The position numbers and the translations under genes were made by a program. The notes beneath the pieces were generated by a model. The model had not been told where the DNA came from. It ran no database searches and saw only the letters and a list, made by a program, of their open reading frames with translations. A stretch of DNA of 20,038 nucleotides from a virus, in the IMG/VR virus record IMGVR_UViG_3300005664_000142, positions 1 through 20,038 of that record; one strand, 5' to 3'. Below are positions 11,744 through 20,038 of the stretch, one piece after another (positions within the stretch are counted from its first letter, which is position 1; each line of letters begins with the position of its first letter).

Positions 11744-13795
11744 TCATAGAAATCCAAATCCGTTGTCATTATTTCCAAAATTATCACCATATCCACCATA
11801 ATTTCCATAAGGACTTCCATAATTATAATCTTCAAACCCATTACCAACAACATTACCATCCATGATAGCAAAACTTGAAAATGAATTCTTTTCACCATCT
11901 TCTGATTTTGTTTCTGTACCATCAAAGAAATCCGTGGTTACATAATATAAAGCCCAAATCAAAGACGAAACACAATCATCGTTCTCATTCTGTCCTTCAG
12001 CGTGGAATACATTAGGAGAAACTTCAATATAACGAGAAAGTTCGTAAATGGTTCTCTTGTCACATATTTCAAGCCAACCATTCTCAATATATTTCTTTAG
12101 AAGCATATTCCCTTCTAACTTTGATTTTCTCGTAGCTCTAACCCCCAACCCCTTCTTATCACAATTAAGCAAACGTTCAAAGTTCTTCTTATTCCACAAC
12201 TCAGAACAAAACAATTCACCAACGTCATTAGATTCCGCCATAACTTCACACTCATTGTAGAAGTCTGAAATACCAATAGTAATATCAACCAACTTATCAA
12301 TCTTTATGTAATTAGAACGGAAAACAGCAACCTGCCTAATCTCAGCTACATTATTTATTCTTAAAACTTGAATAACTGAATAATCATTTCCAGAACCTTT
12401 TCCAGGGTCAACTCCGATAATATACTTCTCACCTTCTATAGGCTGCTCATATATTTGTAAAGCTCCAGAATAATGAGAAATGTCAATAGGTTCCTTCGGA
12501 GTCAATTCCTCTAATTTGTCAGCTTCTATTAGCTGGGAGGATGAACCAATAAATTTGCAGTTATACTCACTTTCAAATTGTTGCTTGGAATATCCACTTC
12601 TTAAAATCCCATCTTTCCAAGCTTCGTCTCTATCTGGGTGTAAATGCCAGGGAAGTTTAACAGAATAAAAATCATTCTCACCAATAACACCAGCTCTGTA
12701 TATTGTGTAAAAATGGTTTAATCCGTTAGGAGTTGACACCATAATAATTTTTCCATTTTTACTTGATGATATTGTTGGCATTACCGATGCTTGAAAATCA
12801 TCCCAAATATAATCCGGAACGAACCCAGCCTCATCCAAAAATATACAATTACTAATTAATTTTGTATTATAATAAAATCTATTAACATCTGAAACATCTA
12901 CTAAATCACAAACTTCTCGCTCTTCAAATATTTTCATTTTTATACATAAATCATCACAAATACCAATATTATAAGAATATTTTCCCACAAATTCCGAAGC
13001 ATTGTATTTATTTAACATATTATCAAATATTTTATGTTCTGGTGTTGTTACTAATTCAACACCCGATTCAAATAATAATTTTATAGTATCTTGTTTTATT
13101 GATGTTATTCCGCGAAAATCTTTATATCCATCGTCTGTAAGAACTTTTATGTTATTGTTATTTTTATAAAAATGTTTATCTTGTATAACGCCACAATACT
13201 CCATATACGTTTTTAGATTTTTTATTGTTGTGATCTCTATATTACCAGCGTCATGTTTAATTGTTACAACACCAGCTTCATCAACGCAATTTATTGAAAA
13301 CCCACGGATTGAGTTTGATGATGTTGATGATGCCATTACACGAACACCATTTTCTAATCGAATTGTCTTTTTATTATATTCAACCACACCTCTCTGCATC
13401 CAGAGAGGAATTAATTGATAAGCCATCTGTATTCTTCCCAAAATCTCAATAGATGTTGCTTCTCTATTTGCCAAAATTGCTATTGTATAATCTTTCCTGA
13501 ACAACATTTCGTGAAGAAGATATATTGTAGTTACTGTAGTTTTTGACATTTGGCGAGCTGCAAGAACACACACATGTTTCTTTCCATTTGGGGGTTCTTT
13601 AATAGCTTTTATTAAACTTTTCTGAAATCCCCAAAGCGGTATTTTTATCTTACCTCTGTCTAAGTTTTGAATATAAAAATAATTCTCAGCGAAATAAAGG
13701 ATATCTTCTTTACATCTAATTATTTCTCTTATCATTTCCTGAGTATATTCAAATGTCTCTCCAGCACCTCTAAGAGATGTATTTCCATCAAACAT
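11744..13795 (-). CDS. Terminase large subunit, gp17-like, interrupted by an in-frame intein
   Basis: A 683-residue precursor. Residues 170-316 are an intein; splicing would leave a 536-residue packaging motor (T4 gp17 is 610). ATPase domain: Walker A-like A-R-Q-M-S-K-T (80-86), S-S-N-S-I-R-G-F-S (159-167), then after the intein C-I-F-L-D-E-A-G-F-V-P (317-327) with Walker B Asp321/Glu322, and V-S-T-P-N-G-L-N-H-F-Y (353-363), the coupling motif. Nuclease domain: G-V-D-P-G (Asp462), A-E-S-N (Glu521) and N-D-D-C (Asp606). Their spacing matches T4 Asp401, Glu458 and Asp542 closely. The protein translocates DNA into the head and cuts the concatemer. The C-terminus (about 646-683) is a Gly/Tyr/Asn-rich tail. 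GAGG precedes the ATG. The Walker A glycine before Lys is Ser84. Confidence 0.93.
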   Translation of the reverse strand: MFDGNTSLRGAGETFEYTQEMIREIIRCKEDILYFAENYFYIQNLDRGKIKIPLWGFQKSLIKAIKEPPNGKKHVCVLAARQMSKTTVTTIYLLHEMLFRKDYTIAILANREATSIEILGRIQMAYQLIPLWMQRGVVEYNKKTIRLENGVRVMASSTSSNSIRGFSINCVDEAGVVTIKHDAGNIEITTIKNLKTYMEYCGVIQDKHFYKNNNNIKVLTDDGYKDFRGITSIKQDTIKLLFESGVELVTTPEHKIFDNMLNKYNASEFVGKYSYNIGICDDLCIKMKIFEEREVCDLVDVSDVNRFYYNTKLISNCIFLDEAGFVPDYIWDDFQASVMPTISSSKNGKIIMVSTPNGLNHFYTIYRAGVIGENDFYSVKLPWHLHPDRDEAWKDGILRSGYSKQQFESEYNCKFIGSSSQLIEADKLEELTPKEPIDISHYSGALQIYEQPIEGEKYIIGVDPGKGSGNDYSVIQVLRINNVAEIRQVAVFRSNYIKIDKLVDITIGISDFYNECEVMAESNDVGELFCSELWNKKNFERLLNCDKKGLGVRATRKSKLEGNMLLKKYIENGWLEICDKRTIYELSRYIEVSPNVFHAEGQNENDDCVSSLIWALYYVTTDFFDGTETKSEDGEKNSFSSFAIMDGNVVGNGFEDYNYGSPYGNYGGYGDNFGNNDNGFGFL
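12848..13288 (-). other. Mini-intein (147 residues) within the large terminase
   Basis: Residues 170-316 of the terminase precursor. It starts with Cys (TGC at 13288-13286) and ends with Ser-Asn, followed by Cys+1 (TGT at 12847-12845). Removing it restores an uninterrupted terminase sequence (..RGFSIN|CIFLDEAG..) aligning with T4 gp17. Block B is T-T-P-E-H-K-I-F with Thr82 and His85; block F is R-E-V-C-D-L-V-D-V-S-D-V-N-R-F-Y; block G ends K-L-I-S-N|C, with Ser in place of the usual penultimate His. There is no LAGLIDADG or HNH endonuclease, and the length is that of a bare splicing domain. N-N-N-N-I-K-V-L-T-D-D-G-Y (43-55) resembles, from memory, the C-fragments of the atypically split AceL-TerL-type inteins. 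Here both parts are in one reading frame. The DNA looks more AT-rich than the flanking exteins. Confidence 0.88.
13389..13408 (-). other. Perfect 8-bp inverted repeat (hairpin) inside terL, upstream of the intein
   Basis: CCTCTCTG and its exact reverse complement CAGAGAGG, separated by 4 bases. On the message the loop is GAUG, so it contains an AUG. It lies about 100 bases before the intein-coding part and encodes L-P-L-W-M-Q-R-G. It is GC-rich in an AT-rich gene. A role is not established; amino acid constraint may explain it. Confidence 0.4.
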
Positions 13796-15316: not shown

Positions 15317-18300
15317 TTAAATAACACAGCAGAATCCTCTAAATTCATATTCGCCTGTATGAACTATCAACATAGACCTAAATCCAATGAAATCTACGGT
15401 ATCTCCACCTGTTTTCGTAATTGCTGTTCCTGAAGATGTTCTATACTTTAAAGAATACCCATTTGGAACTGTCAATAAATTTGTTGTAGCTACGGCACCT
15501 GCTTCACCCATAACAAAAAATCTAGTACCAATTATCGATGTAGGTATTGTCCAACCACCTGTTGATATAATGATAACTTCCCCAAACTGCTGTTCTGTTG
15601 TTGTGCTTGGAGTTTGTACTACCGATCTAACAATTCCTAATTTGTTAATATTTACATTTTGAGAATTCCAAGATATACCCGGTGTTATTGCTAACGAAAA
15701 TGCAACACCTACATCTGAAGTAGTTCCTATTTTCCCACCAGCACTTGTTAAAACAATACCTCCACCAATTGTCGAACCACCATCATTATATAACCACGAC
15801 TCGCCAGCCAGATGCGGAGAACCAAAGTAATCAATATTATCAATAAATCTTGTTTTTGGAAATGCTAGTGTATTTGTTGATATGTTATCAACATTAAGGT
15901 CTTTGAAAACAGCCTTTCCGTCACCAAATATAGATGCTACATTTGAACTACTTCCAGGAACACCATTATAAAAATCTAGTTTGTTTGAGCTTGAAGCTAG
16001 ATGGATTGAATAATTGCCGTTCTGAGGATTCCAGATATCTACATCATTTGATGATTTTCTAAAACGTATTCTATCATCTGCCAAACTGACATCAGTATTT
16101 GAGAAGAAATTTGCGATCCAGCTCCCGTCTGCATTGTTTATGGTAAATGCTTCAGAACCATCATTATTGTTTGAAAGAGTTAGAATCAACGCACCCGAAT
16201 CAGCGGTTCCTGTAGATGAAAATGTATACCAATCAGAAGAACTACCAAGGATACCCGTCAATGGTAGATAATTACCTGGCGTAAAGTTTCCTGCATTCCA
16301 GATTGTGTTTCCGTTTACCTTTGCGAAGTTATTATTTGGACCAATTAAATTAACCCAATCAGTTATGTCATTTGTAACATATAGTTCCAAAGATTGGTCT
16401 TCGCCCGAGCGAGTAACCAATCGCATACCCGCAGTATCACCACTTCCACCAAAAGCATTATCTGGAAATTTGATACCTGCGGTTGTAACATTTAAAGCAT
16501 ATCCAACACTTACAGAATCTTTTGTGTATGATATTGCGGCTTTGTTATTTCCTACACCATTATACACACCCAAGGCAACTTTATTTGCTGATGTTCCGAA
16601 TCTTACAGCAAGGTCACCAGTGGCATCATCTGAAAAATATGATGCTGGATAGGAAGCAATGTCTATAGTTTGGTTATTCCATGCGTTTGTTCCGACTTTT
16701 CCATTCAACTGAGTTTGGATATTGGAAGTGGTTCCTGTGAGATGGGTGGCAGTGATTGGCAAATTAGAGTTAGTCCAAATTTCGCTCCACGATTCCCACG
16801 ACGAAGCATTTCTTGTTCTAAATGCTATTCTACTTTTATAGTTTGTCATCCCCCAAACAAGCTGACCACCGTACCCCGTTGAACCATCATCCAAACCATT
16901 CCTATGTCTAACATCAATAGTGTTGTAATACGCATTTCCGAACGGAGAACCCGATGTTGCGTTTTTAGCACCGACAAAAGAGTAAATTGTATTGTTTTCC
17001 GGATAATCTAAATTAACATTTGTATCGTATGATAATGCACGAACAGTATCTGAAATTGCTGGCTTTCCATTCAACTGAGTTTGTATATTTGAAGACACAC
17101 CACTCAGATGACCAAGTTCTATATTTGTTATTGTTGAGGTTGTTAATTTTTGAGAAGCATCTGTTAAAACAACTCTATTTGCTGTAGAATTTAACTTCAA
17201 CGAATTAACAAAATATGGATAATTTACACCAGATTCTACTCGCATAAATTCTGATGTATTTTTATTGAAATATGTAATATCTGATATGTTATTAATTCCA
17301 AATTTTTCAGAACCACCGACATCCATCTGGAAATAAGAAGTAGCACCTGTACCAGCATTCATTTTAAATGTGGTGTTTCCAGTGTTTGTTCCGTATGTTA
17401 GAAGTGTAGTTTCATCTAATAACGATGAGTTGCCTACCGTTCTAGTTCCTGTAAATTTTGGAATGTAATTAGATGTTCCAGATCCACTTATCACATTCGC
17501 AACTGCTGTATATGCAGAGTTCCAGTTTGCTATGGATGAGGAATCCGTAACAGTATCAATCGCTCGTTGCCATGGTGACCAACCGTTGAAATCATCTCTC
17601 TTATTTCTAAACCACATCCTTTCCGATCCAGCATCAGTTCCAGCCCAGCTTAAAAATATTTGATTTCTACCAGCTCCATCTAACGATAATATATTACCAT
17701 ACGAAGCTGGATAATCTTGCCAATAAACCCTAGACATATACAGCCCATCACCAAACCATGATGATGGCGTTGCTGATGAATTTGGTGAAACTCTATCACC
17801 AACAATAAATTGATGGGTGTGGCTTGTTAAACTTCTAGCATTAAGTTGAGTTTGTATATTTGAAGTAACACCATCAAGATAATTGAACTCTGTATTAGAA
17901 ATATTCCCAATTGTCAATGTAGATGCAGATACTGAGTTAAATGTAGCAGTAACTGCTGGTGCGGATAATGTTGTTGGATTGAATGTATAAGCAGTATTTC
18001 TTGTAGAGGATTGTCTAAACGCCAAATTGATAGATTCTGTGCCACCATCACCTGTTTCAATAAACATTGCTCCGGCATTACTTCCACCTTCGCCGTAAAT
18101 TCTCCATTGGTCATTTGTCCCCATTGTTTGTGAAATTGAATACGGTGGAAGGGCAGATGGATATGTAGTTAATGCTTGTTCTACAATTCGGAATGTTTGT
18201 GCATTTGATGTAATGGCAGAAACTGATGTAGCCGAAACAATTCCAATTTTAGCAGTTCCAGTGTATACTAACGAAGTCCCATCATATCCAAATGCATTTG

Positions 18301-20038
18301 AGTCAGAACCAAATTTAATATAGCCTTTAGTAGCATCATTAACACCTCTAATTCCTAATGTGTGTGAAACATTAATATCACCAATAAGCGCATCATCTCC
18401 AACTCGTATATTATCCCCGCTTCCATTTGCAGATAAGTGTATAGAATCAAATATTGGCGATGCAGATAATGCCAATGACTGATTAATCAAATCAAGATTT
18501 GCTTTATTTGGGTGGTTGTGTGCAGAAGTGTACCCAATATTCCAATTAGCTTTTTCGGTATCAGTTACAAATCTATTGGACGCATCTTGAGAAATCTTAG
18601 ACGGCCCAAGTGTAGGAACATCTGCAGAAGTTAATGTTGCCCCTGCTGTTACTTGACCATACGCATTTGTGGTAACTTTTGTATAGGTTCCAGCAGTTCC
18701 TGTAGTAGCTAACGAAATAGTTCTATTAGTTGAAAGATTTCCACCGCCTGCCAAACCTGTTCCAGCTGTTATAGTAACCGTTTTATCTGCTTTAGATGCA
18801 GACAATGTAGACAACTGCGTCTGAATATTTGCAGAAGTTCCGGCAAGATACCCAAGTTCAGTTGTTGTGATTGATGATGAAACGAGATTCTTAGAGCCAT
18901 CTGTAACAACAACTGCTGAAGTTGTTAGATTTGGAATATTGATTTTTCTTGTGGAGGTTCCTATTGTCACAGTTCCGGTTGCCCCACTCAATACCGATAC
19001 TGGGAAGTCATTAACCACCACATCTTGAATCACAAATGAATTGTTCTGAAGGGTTCCTGTATACCACCGAATTGATCCAGCATCATTGAAACGAATGCCT
19101 TTTGAATTTCCTACCGGGCCATCAATAACTAAACGCGGGTTGGTTGCGGAAATAGTTAAGTAGTCTCCACGAAAAGTAACATCTTTATTTGCCGTGTTTT
19201 CAGATTCTATTCCAAAAACGGTTTCATATGCAGACGTAGTATTGTTGTATCTTTGATGCTTAAATGTGCTATTTGTTAATCCAATAAGTCTAAACCCAGG
19301 GAGATATAACTTACCTGAATTTGCATCACTTAAAATTCCAGCAGCGCCAATACGAATTTCACCCCCGCCCGCCTGACCCGGATTCTGGTTTATGATTATA
19401 ACAGGAGAATTGATGTTTGCCGATAACCCAACTCCGAGGGTAGTACCATCAAAGGTTAATGCTGTTTCTCCTGCTAAATTTGAGGCGTTTGTAAATGTTG
19501 CTATTCTATTATCAGCGCCATTTGAATATGTTGCTTTTGTTGACGTGGTTGCCGAAAGATTTGTTAACTGATTTTGAATGTTTGCGGATGTTCCTACAAG
19601 ATATCCAAGTTCGGTTGTTGTTACAGTAGAAGATACAAAATTTTTAGAACCATCTGAAACAACGACTCTTGATGTGGTAAGAGATTGAGAATTGATTGTT
19701 CCGTTTGAATTAATTCCGGCAATTGGAGTTCTCGCTCCTGGAGTTCCTTGGTAAAAATTAAATCCTTGCCCGTTAGAAATATGAACTGAGTATGAACCAC
19801 CTTGGTCATTCCAAATATCTGTGTTTGTTGTTGATGCAATAACACAGAATGTACTTGTTCCTGCTCTAAGCTGAGTAACATCAAAACGACCACCATAATT
19901 TAGAGATGTCTGATTATATCCTAATTTATTACTATCACTACCGAACCCAACATATCCCTGTCCTGGTAATGTTATACCCTTGACCCAAATAGTATTTGCT
20001 ACATTTACATCACCAATCCAAGCATCATCACCCACTCT
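15317..20038 (-). CDS. Long modular tail fibre / receptor-binding protein (partial, N-terminus outside window)
   Basis: At least 1573 residues. The frame is open to the last base, and the apparent GTG at 20035 lies inside a repeated module (R-V-G-D-D-A), so the true start lies beyond the window. The protein is rich in Ser, Thr, Asn and Gly, without coiled coils. A motif of the form T-x-x-E-L-x-x-L-x-G-x-x-S-N-I-Q-T-Q-L-N occurs five times (about residues 139, 389, 713, 971 and 1094), joining larger modules. Two knob-like modules (about 740-827, ending G-W-S-P-W-Q-R-A-I, and 999-1092, ending W-E-S-W-S-E-I-W-T-N-S-N) resemble pyocin/phage fibre knobs. H-x-H motifs occur near residue 499 and just before residue 740. 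The last 100 residues form a beta-rich tip. No auto-cleaving chaperone motif is recognised. It likely binds the host surface. Confidence 0.85.
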   Translation of the reverse strand, partial: RVGDDAWIGDVNVANTIWVKGITLPGQGYVGFGSDSNKLGYNQTSLNYGGRFDVTQLRAGTSTFCVIASTTNTDIWNDQGGSYSVHISNGQGFNFYQGTPGARTPIAGINSNGTINSQSLTTSRVVVSDGSKNFVSSTVTTTELGYLVGTSANIQNQLTNLSATTSTKATYSNGADNRIATFTNASNLAGETALTFDGTTLGVGLSANINSPVIIINQNPGQAGGGEIRIGAAGILSDANSGKLYLPGFRLIGLTNSTFKHQRYNNTTSAYETVFGIESENTANKDVTFRGDYLTISATNPRLVIDGPVGNSKGIRFNDAGSIRWYTGTLQNNSFVIQDVVVNDFPVSVLSGATGTVTIGTSTRKINIPNLTTSAVVVTDGSKNLVSSSITTTELGYLAGTSANIQTQLSTLSASKADKTVTITAGTGLAGGGNLSTNRTISLATTGTAGTYTKVTTNAYGQVTAGATLTSADVPTLGPSKISQDASNRFVTDTEKANWNIGYTSAHNHPNKANLDLINQSLALSASPIFDSIHLSANGSGDNIRVGDDALIGDINVSHTLGIRGVNDATKGYIKFGSDSNAFGYDGTSLVYTGTAKIGIVSATSVSAITSNAQTFRIVEQALTTYPSALPPYSISQTMGTNDQWRIYGEGGSNAGAMFIETGDGGTESINLAFRQSSTRNTAYTFNPTTLSAPAVTATFNSVSASTLTIGNISNTEFNYLDGVTSNIQTQLNARSLTSHTHQFIVGDRVSPNSSATPSSWFGDGLYMSRVYWQDYPASYGNILSLDGAGRNQIFLSWAGTDAGSERMWFRNKRDDFNGWSPWQRAIDTVTDSSSIANWNSAYTAVANVISGSGTSNYIPKFTGTRTVGNSSLLDETTLLTYGTNTGNTTFKMNAGTGATSYFQMDVGGSEKFGINNISDITYFNKNTSEFMRVESGVNYPYFVNSLKLNSTANRVVLTDASQKLTTSTITNIELGHLSGVSSNIQTQLNGKPAISDTVRALSYDTNVNLDYPENNTIYSFVGAKNATSGSPFGNAYYNTIDVRHRNGLDDGSTGYGGQLVWGMTNYKSRIAFRTRNASSWESWSEIWTNSNLPITATHLTGTTSNIQTQLNGKVGTNAWNNQTIDIASYPASYFSDDATGDLAVRFGTSANKVALGVYNGVGNNKAAISYTKDSVSVGYALNVTTAGIKFPDNAFGGSGDTAGMRLVTRSGEDQSLELYVTNDITDWVNLIGPNNNFAKVNGNTIWNAGNFTPGNYLPLTGILGSSSDWYTFSSTGTADSGALILTLSNNNDGSEAFTINNADGSWIANFFSNTDVSLADDRIRFRKSSNDVDIWNPQNGNYSIHLASSSNKLDFYNGVPGSSSNVASIFGDGKAVFKDLNVDNISTNTLAFPKTRFIDNIDYFGSPHLAGESWLYNDGGSTIGGGIVLTSAGGKIGTTSDVGVAFSLAITPGISWNSQNVNINKLGIVRSVVQTPSTTTEQQFGEVIIISTGGWTIPTSIIGTRFFVMGEAGAVATTNLLTVPNGYSLKYRTSSGTAITKTGGDTVDFIGFRSMLIVHTGEYEFRGFCCVI
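16698..17083 (-). repeat. 20-bp perfect direct repeat pair in the tail fibre gene
   Basis: Copies at 16698-16717 and 17064-17083 are identical on the plus strand (tttccattcaactgagtttg). They encode the same end of the junction motif, Q-T-Q-L-N-G-K. They bracket one knob-like module, so recombination between them could delete or swap it. Confidence 0.85.
16700..19620 (-). repeat. Five degenerate copies of the fibre junction motif
   Basis: Approximate copies at 19561-19620, 18812-18870, 17841-17898, 17066-17125 and 16700-16755. Each encodes an E-L-x-x-L (or H-L) turn followed by G-x-x-S-N-I-Q-x-Q-L. Copies 1 and 2 share a longer block upstream (V-V-x-D-G-S-K-N-x-V-S-S), showing that the duplicated unit is larger than the motif. 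Spacing is irregular, as expected for module joints rather than a uniform tandem repeat. Confidence 0.8.

What the first reader, a model, noticed from the sequence alone, without database searches (positions are those of the whole stretch)
12848..13288. Contiguous mini-intein at the Walker B strand of the large terminase, apparently related to atypically split TerL inteins
Seen: a 147-residue insert with Cys1, T-x-x-H block B, a block F-like segment, terminal Asn and Cys+1. Its removal gives a clean gp17 alignment. Known: metagenomic terminase inteins such as AceL-TerL are split unusually close to the N-terminus. From memory, their C-fragment (N-N-I-K-I-L..G-F..F-x-G-I) resembles residues 45-61 here, and their +1 extein (C-x-F-L) resembles C-I-F-L here. 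Inference: this is an unsplit relative, possibly showing the ancestral state or a refusion. The region around intein residues 25-42 would be where the split occurs in relatives.
Basis: partly seen in the sequence, partly recalled or inferred. Interest (0 to 1): 0.78.

Follow-up and report, generated by a model that had tools for sequence, protein, structure and literature searches.

The report
Unsplit intein in a phage packaging motor
A phage DNA-packaging enzyme carries a small self-splicing protein insert (an intein) in one piece, at exactly the spot where the same kind of insert is cut into two separate genes in many related phages, so it is a normal intein with an informative evolutionary position.

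Summary
TerL (11744-13795, minus strand, 683 aa) is a T4 gp17 homologue interrupted at residues 170-316 (12848-13288) by a 147-aa class-1-type mini-intein: Cys1, T82-P-E-H85, D128, Asn147, Cys+1. It matches the solved intein CatC (E=9e-5), and its AlphaFold model (pLDDT 85) retrieves only inteins or intein-like domains from the PDB at E<=0.001. In 78 IMG/VR TerLs the same site is empty. The family link to atypically split TerL inteins is right, and stronger than claimed: 31 non-redundant relatives sit at exactly this site (RG-x4|C...[NQ]|C-h-h-h-DE). Twenty are split after 31-51 residues, usually around a GIY-YIG homing endonuclease; nine are contiguous with an HNH gene; two are contiguous minis. 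The tree puts the window beside a split intein (L026), favouring re-fusion of a split ancestor, but other placements are not rejected. Verdict: new member of a known kind. A side finding may be more novel: out-of-frame HNH genes overlapping contiguous inteins at this site.

The parts
11744..13795 (-). Large terminase (gp17/TerL) precursor, 683 aa; predicted mature product 536 aa after splicing
   Evidence: Terminase_6N/6C; T4 gp17 structures, E 1e-65; PHROG terminase large subunit
12848..13288 (-). Contiguous mini-intein, 147 aa (TerL residues 170-316)
   Evidence: empty site in L004/L005/L097 and 78 TerLs
13286..13288 (-). Cys1 (intein N-terminal nucleophile)
   Evidence: conserved in all 32 same-site inteins
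13193..13288 (-). IntN-equivalent part, residues 1-32; Cys32 (TGT, 13193-13195) aligns with the TGA stop ending IntN in locus L026
   Evidence: alignment read by eye: IKNLKTYMEYC / IKELRQRMGE*
13160..13192 (-). Junction segment, residues 33-43, where same-site relatives are split or carry a homing endonuclease gene
   Evidence: mean pLDDT of residues 31-40 dips to 78
12848..13159 (-). IntC-equivalent part, residues 44-147 (NNNIKVLTDDGYKDFRGI...)
   Evidence: CatC alignment; family profile
13034..13045 (-). Block B T82-P-E-H85
   Evidence: Invariant T82 and H85 in A6
12905..12907 (-). Block F Asp128 (VCDLV)
   Evidence: Asp or Glu in all same-site relatives
12881..12883 (-). Asn136 in place of the block F His; together with Ser146 both usual C-terminal helper histidines are missing
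   Evidence: 27 of 32 same-site inteins have His here
12851..12853 (-). Ser146 in place of the usual penultimate His
12848..12850 (-). Asn147, terminal residue that would cyclise
12845..12847 (-). Cys+1 (TerL residue 317), 4 residues before the Walker B Asp321
   Evidence: the 78 empty-site TerLs never have Cys here

Best explanation
The insert is a class 1 mini-intein with no homing endonuclease, sitting in the Walker B strand of a T4-like TerL. It is translated as part of the precursor, folds as a HINT domain, and should excise itself by the standard route: N-to-S shift at Cys1, transfer of the N-extein to Cys+1, Asn147 cyclisation, S-to-N shift. That would leave a 536-aa terminase with ...RGFSIN-CIFLDEAGF.... 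Splicing is inferred, not shown; it is almost obligatory because the insert separates the Walker B strand from the rest of an essential ATPase fold. It belongs to a family of TerL inteins that occupies exactly this site in three other forms: atypically split around a GIY-YIG homing endonuclease gene, split after that gene was lost, and contiguous with an out-of-frame HNH gene. The window's contiguous form most likely arose from a split ancestor that lost its homing endonuclease and then fused (inferred, about 50%); the rest of the probability is that this lineage was never split or descends from the contiguous HNH form. The confidence below is for the mini-intein identity, site and family, not for the direction of evolution.
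For: Sequence: all class 1 nucleophiles present. Homology: CatC, gp41-1 and VidaL hits. Structure: HINT-like model, only intein-type PDB hits at E<=0.001; the best BFVD hits include large terminases with insert-sized extra domains. Site: clean gp17 alignment and empty homologues. Same-site family with split, HEG-containing and mini forms. Tree: window sister of L026_split 96/83*, in a set with two more split inteins 96/92*. Rare shared features with L026: block F His to Asn, penultimate Ser, VCDLV, no Cys before block B Thr. TerL: closest relative also L026 at 56.5%. Intermediates exist: L077 and L094 are split with the homing endonuclease gone; L073 is an HNH-family intein without the HNH.
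Against: Splicing was not assayed. The window intein is on a long branch (1.4-2.1), and in IntC-only trees its position is unresolved. Grouping it with contiguous HNH inteins is not rejected (AU p 0.18-0.24), nor is a tree with the window outside all same-site split inteins (p 0.083). Both helper histidines near the C-terminal junction are missing, so splicing might be slow. Curated intein models do not reach threshold.
Confidence: 0.9

Rival explanations
1. The contiguous form is ancestral in this lineage: the window's intein was never split, and L026-like inteins were split later when a homing endonuclease invaded the loop after residue 32.
For: A tree with the window outside all same-site split inteins is not rejected (p 0.083); contiguous forms exist at this site (L068, L073, HNH forms) and at the neighbouring DE|C site (CP21, SRB7757).
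Against: The best tree nests the window with L026, L056 and L075, all split; it shares rare block F and junction residues with L026.
Confidence: 0.3
2. The window intein descends from the contiguous form with an out-of-frame HNH gene and lost that gene by deletion, as L073 did.
For: An IntC-only tree joins it to L089/L050 (75, not starred); this grouping is not rejected with IntN included (p 0.18); L073 shows that such a loss happens.
Against: The IntN+IntC tree prefers L026 by 10 log units; the window's TerL belongs with L026/L004/L077/L057/L097 (100*), not with the HNH-intein TerLs.
Confidence: 0.15
3. The segment is a decayed intein or a permanently retained domain that no longer splices.
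For: Both helper histidines are absent and the sequence is divergent.
Against: Nucleophiles, block B, Asp128, Asn147 and Cys+1 are all intact and the ORF is open; L026 has the same two substitutions; an unspliced insert would break the Walker B strand. Relatives lacking the insert have normal terminases.
Confidence: 0.05

Closest known systems
Cat / AceL-TerL / GOS-TerL atypically split inteins (PMC11766414: IntN 25-37 aa, IntC 104-115 aa)
   Same: Host gene, IntC sequence family, Cys+1, position of the N-proximal break relative to the fold
   Different: Window form is contiguous; its insertion site is Walker B (Cys317), while the Cat-like L216 sits at the C-x-F-[IL]-G-S site equivalent to residue 413
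Same-site split TerL inteins in IMG/VR (L026, L077, L034, L056 and others; found here)
   Same: Exact insertion site, Cys1, block B, Cys+1; L026 shares rare residues
   Different: Two genes, mostly with a GIY-YIG homing endonuclease between them; many end in Gln rather than Asn
Mycobacteriophage TerL1-e intein (Gaia; PMC5050341)
   Same: Contiguous intein in the Walker B motif of a large terminase, spliced in the reported assay
   Different: Different terminase family and phage group; sequence relationship not tested here
Campylobacter phage CP21 TerL third intein and Nitratidesulfovibrio phage SRB7757 TerL intein
   Same: Contiguous mini-inteins of the same family in the Walker B region of gp17 homologues (36% and 26% identity)
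   Different: Inserted after the DE pair (DE|C), 6 residues downstream of the window site
Fractured-gene split inteins with a homing endonuclease in the gap (Dassa et al. 2009; not held, cited from knowledge)
   Same: Same arrangement as the window's split relatives
   Different: The window has no endonuclease and no split

Membership tests
Class 1 inteins | Cys/Ser/Thr at position 1 and at +1 | tested here: met
   Cys1 and Cys+1
Class 1 inteins | Block B T-x-x-H | tested here: met
   T82-P-E-H85, invariant across family
Class 1 inteins | Terminal Asn (or Gln) | tested here: met
   Asn147
Class 1 inteins | Penultimate His and/or block F His (helper residues, usual but not strictly defining) | tested here: not met
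   Ser146 and Asn136; both positions vary within the family
Class 1 inteins | HINT fold | tested here: met
   AlphaFold pLDDT 85; Foldseek gp41-1 7e-7, CatC 2e-5, VidaL 8e-5
Class 1 inteins | Score above curated intein models (annotation threshold, not a mechanistic feature) | tested here: not met
   PF14890 no hit, TIGR01445 E=0.27; 11 of 26 family members do match TIGR01445
Class 1 inteins | Uninterrupted homologues with an exact empty site | tested here: met
   78 TerLs plus L004/L005
Class 1 inteins | Self-excision with ligation of exteins | not testable with these tools
   Needs expression
Atypically split TerL inteins (AceL/GOS/Cat type) | IntC sequence similarity | tested here: met
   CatC E=9e-5 single sequence; 6e-18 family profile
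Atypically split TerL inteins (AceL/GOS/Cat type) | Encoded as two polypeptides with a short (25-37 aa) IntN | tested here: not met
   Single open frame of 683 codons
Atypically split TerL inteins (AceL/GOS/Cat type) | Insertion at the C-x-F-[IL]-G-S site | tested here: not met
   That site is uninterrupted at residues 412-419
Walker B (C-h-h-h-DE) site TerL intein family | RG-x4|C ... [NQ]|C-x3-DE insertion site | tested here: met
   Identical position in 32 non-redundant inteins

The most novel reading that the evidence does not exclude
The window's mini-intein is a natural re-fusion of an atypically split intein: a split ancestor with a GIY-YIG endonuclease in the gap lost the endonuclease, and a change such as TGA to TGT at the IntN stop joined the halves. 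Split and contiguous inteins would then interconvert through loss of the homing endonuclease.
Probability: 0.5. Interest if true: 0.6.

Novelty: new member of a known kind. Interest (0 to 1): 0.5.

Why it matters
At one insertion site in one essential phage gene, the same intein family occurs split with an endonuclease, split without it, contiguous with an overlapping endonuclease, and contiguous with none. That makes the origin and reversal of intein splitting testable with natural variants, and the window sequence supplies a single-chain scaffold that can be cut at residue 32/33 and compared with naturally split relatives. Practically it adds a contiguous sequence to the short-IntN inteins used for protein labelling.

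Tried and rejected
The idea that C-V-D-E-A-G at the intein start is a copied Walker B motif (it resembles C-I-F-L-D-E-A-G) was dropped: same-site inteins start C-V-D-G-[ST]-[ST]-x-V-T, so it is ordinary block A sequence. A second family member in the window was sought and not found. A genome-contig scan for the intein plus C-extein found nothing. IntN fragments aligned separately misaligned (A5) and were left out of the AlphaFold alignment. IntC-only trees did not resolve the window. Dassa 2009 was not held, and the original AceL/GOS papers were not found.

Full report
What is in the sequence. The window is a whole 20,038-base IMG/VR record, a fragment of a T4-like contractile-tail phage: sheath, tube, baseplate and tape-measure-like genes flank the terminase on the minus strand. 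TerL is 11744-13795 (-), 683 aa. T4 gp17 structures match residues 5-168 and 317-619 (E=1e-65) and skip the insert. The insert, 12848-13288, is 147 aa and runs from Cys170 to Asn316, with Cys317 as +1.

It is an intein. Alone it matches the consensus atypical TerL intein CatC (E=9e-5, residues 36-141) and gp41-1 (0.017). Pfam gives nothing and TIGR01445 is below cut-off (0.27), so routine annotation would miss it. A profile of 26 relatives retrieves CatC (6e-18), gp41-1 (1e-12) and VidaL (3e-4). The AlphaFold model (pLDDT 85, pTM 0.77) has the HINT-type mostly-beta layout with a helix at residues 22-32; all 48 PDB matches at E<=0.001 are inteins or intein-like domains. Cys1, T82-P-E-H85, Asp128, Asn147 and Cys+1 are present; the two histidines that usually assist Asn cyclisation are replaced by Asn136 and Ser146. 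GC is 0.24-0.28 in the insert against 0.31-0.36 around it.

The site. In 78 TerLs fetched by their C-extein the strand is uninterrupted, e.g. RGMSFN-ILFLDEFAF, always with eight residues between RG and DE and never Cys at the +1 position. The closest empty relatives of the window's TerL are L004/L005 (48%) and L097 (46%). Removing the insert restores RGFSIN-CIFLDEAGF with the same spacing.

Same-site relatives. A scan with eight IntC sequences gave 80 loci. An HMM search and N-extein mapping found 32 non-redundant inteins, window included, at exactly RG-x4|C...[NQ]|C-x3-DE. Twenty are split: IntN of 31-51 aa fused to the N-extein, then usually a free-standing homing endonuclease of GIY-YIG type (L026 and L034 match PHROG 314, homing endonuclease, E about 1e-38), then IntC, commonly starting MADL. 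In L077 and L094 the endonuclease is gone and only about 40 and 8 bases remain. Nine are contiguous, 351-389 aa, with an HNH gene. Three are contiguous minis: the window (147), L068 (145), L073 (144).

Relation to AceL/GOS/Cat. CatC groups with L216 at 98* and 54% identity, and L216's C-extein is CDFIGSAGTLI, a site equivalent to the window's uninterrupted residues 412-419 NCKFIGSS. That AceL itself lies at the L216 site is inferred from this grouping and from general knowledge; the original papers were not held.

Split first or contiguous first. On IntN+IntC sequences the window is sister to L026_split (96/83*) inside a set with L056 and L075, also split (96/92*); contiguous versus split needs five changes on the tree. 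L026 is also the closest TerL relative (56.5%; window, L026 and L004 form a 99* set) and shares block F Asn, penultimate Ser and VCDLV. In the alignment the window's Cys32 codon TGT stands opposite L026's IntN stop TGA. These favour re-fusion. Against certainty: the window branch is long, IntC-only trees do not resolve it, and AU tests do not reject grouping it with the HNH-containing forms (p 0.18-0.24) or placing it outside the same-site split inteins (p 0.083). I put re-fusion at about one half.

A side observation stands out. In the contiguous HNH-containing inteins the HNH endonuclease is encoded in another frame (+1 relative to the intein) while the intein frame stays open straight through about 225 codons. 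In seven loci, shuffling synonymous codons of the HNH frame 2,000 times gave 14-18 stops on average in the intein frame, never zero, where zero is observed; the third frame has 23-31 stops. HNH protein identities between loci fall to 41% while both frames stay open. This looks like true dual coding. One full-text search found no paper describing it, which is weak evidence of novelty.

What is known. Inteins in the TerL Walker B motif are known from mycobacteriophages and were reported to splice (PMC5050341). TerL inteins are noted for Salmonella phage Mooltan (PMC6486243), Rak2-like phages (PMC5259590) and Campylobacter phage IBB_35 (PMC3322345). Several large terminases of insert-bearing length are among the BFVD fold matches. 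The window is therefore a new member of a known kind whose value lies in its exact position among split relatives.

Noticed in passing
L049 2848-3660, L025 2345-3181, L043 3324-4052, L050 3291-4013, also L033, L054, L089: An HNH homing endonuclease is encoded out of frame (+1) inside contiguous 351-389 aa TerL inteins, and the intein frame is stop-free through the whole overlap (0 stops against 14-18 expected; 0 of 2000 shuffles in each of 7 loci). Possible dual-coding intein/endonuclease overlap.
   Followed up: partly
L002 1148-5434 (Campylobacter phage CP21): TerL appears to carry three inteins not annotated as such: contiguous at Walker A, atypically split with a homing endonuclease-like ORF before Walker B, and contiguous after the DE pair.
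   Followed up: partly
L003 (Campylobacter phage IBB_35): The third CP21-type TerL intein is interrupted by an HNH (MobE-like) ORF after its IntN, giving a split version of an intein that is contiguous in CP21.
   Followed up: partly
L013, L014, L015 and hits H65-H92 (T4-like phages of Escherichia, Salmonella, Shigella, Yersinia, Shewanella): gp17 annotated as two or three genes with an endonuclease is an atypically split intein at DE|C in the Walker B motif; records label the pieces as terminase fragments, endonucleases or hypothetical proteins.
   Followed up: partly
L077 3828-3870 and L094 3956-3971: Split inteins whose homing endonuclease is entirely gone, leaving about 40 and 8 bases between IntN and IntC; L077's TerL is a close sister of an intein-free TerL, L097.
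   Followed up: partly
L085, L089, L094, L081, L057, L048: Single TerL genes with two or three family inteins at different sites (P-loop, Walker B, after Walker B, C-x-F-[IL] site).
   Followed up: no
Window 12851-12883: Both helper histidines near the C-terminal splice junction are replaced (Asn136, Ser146); L026, L077 and L025 also lack both.
   Followed up: partly
Window 15317-20035 (-): A 1572-aa GTG-start ORF with a match to a virion structural protein family (PHROG 16122) runs up to the contig edge, so it is probably incomplete.
   Followed up: no
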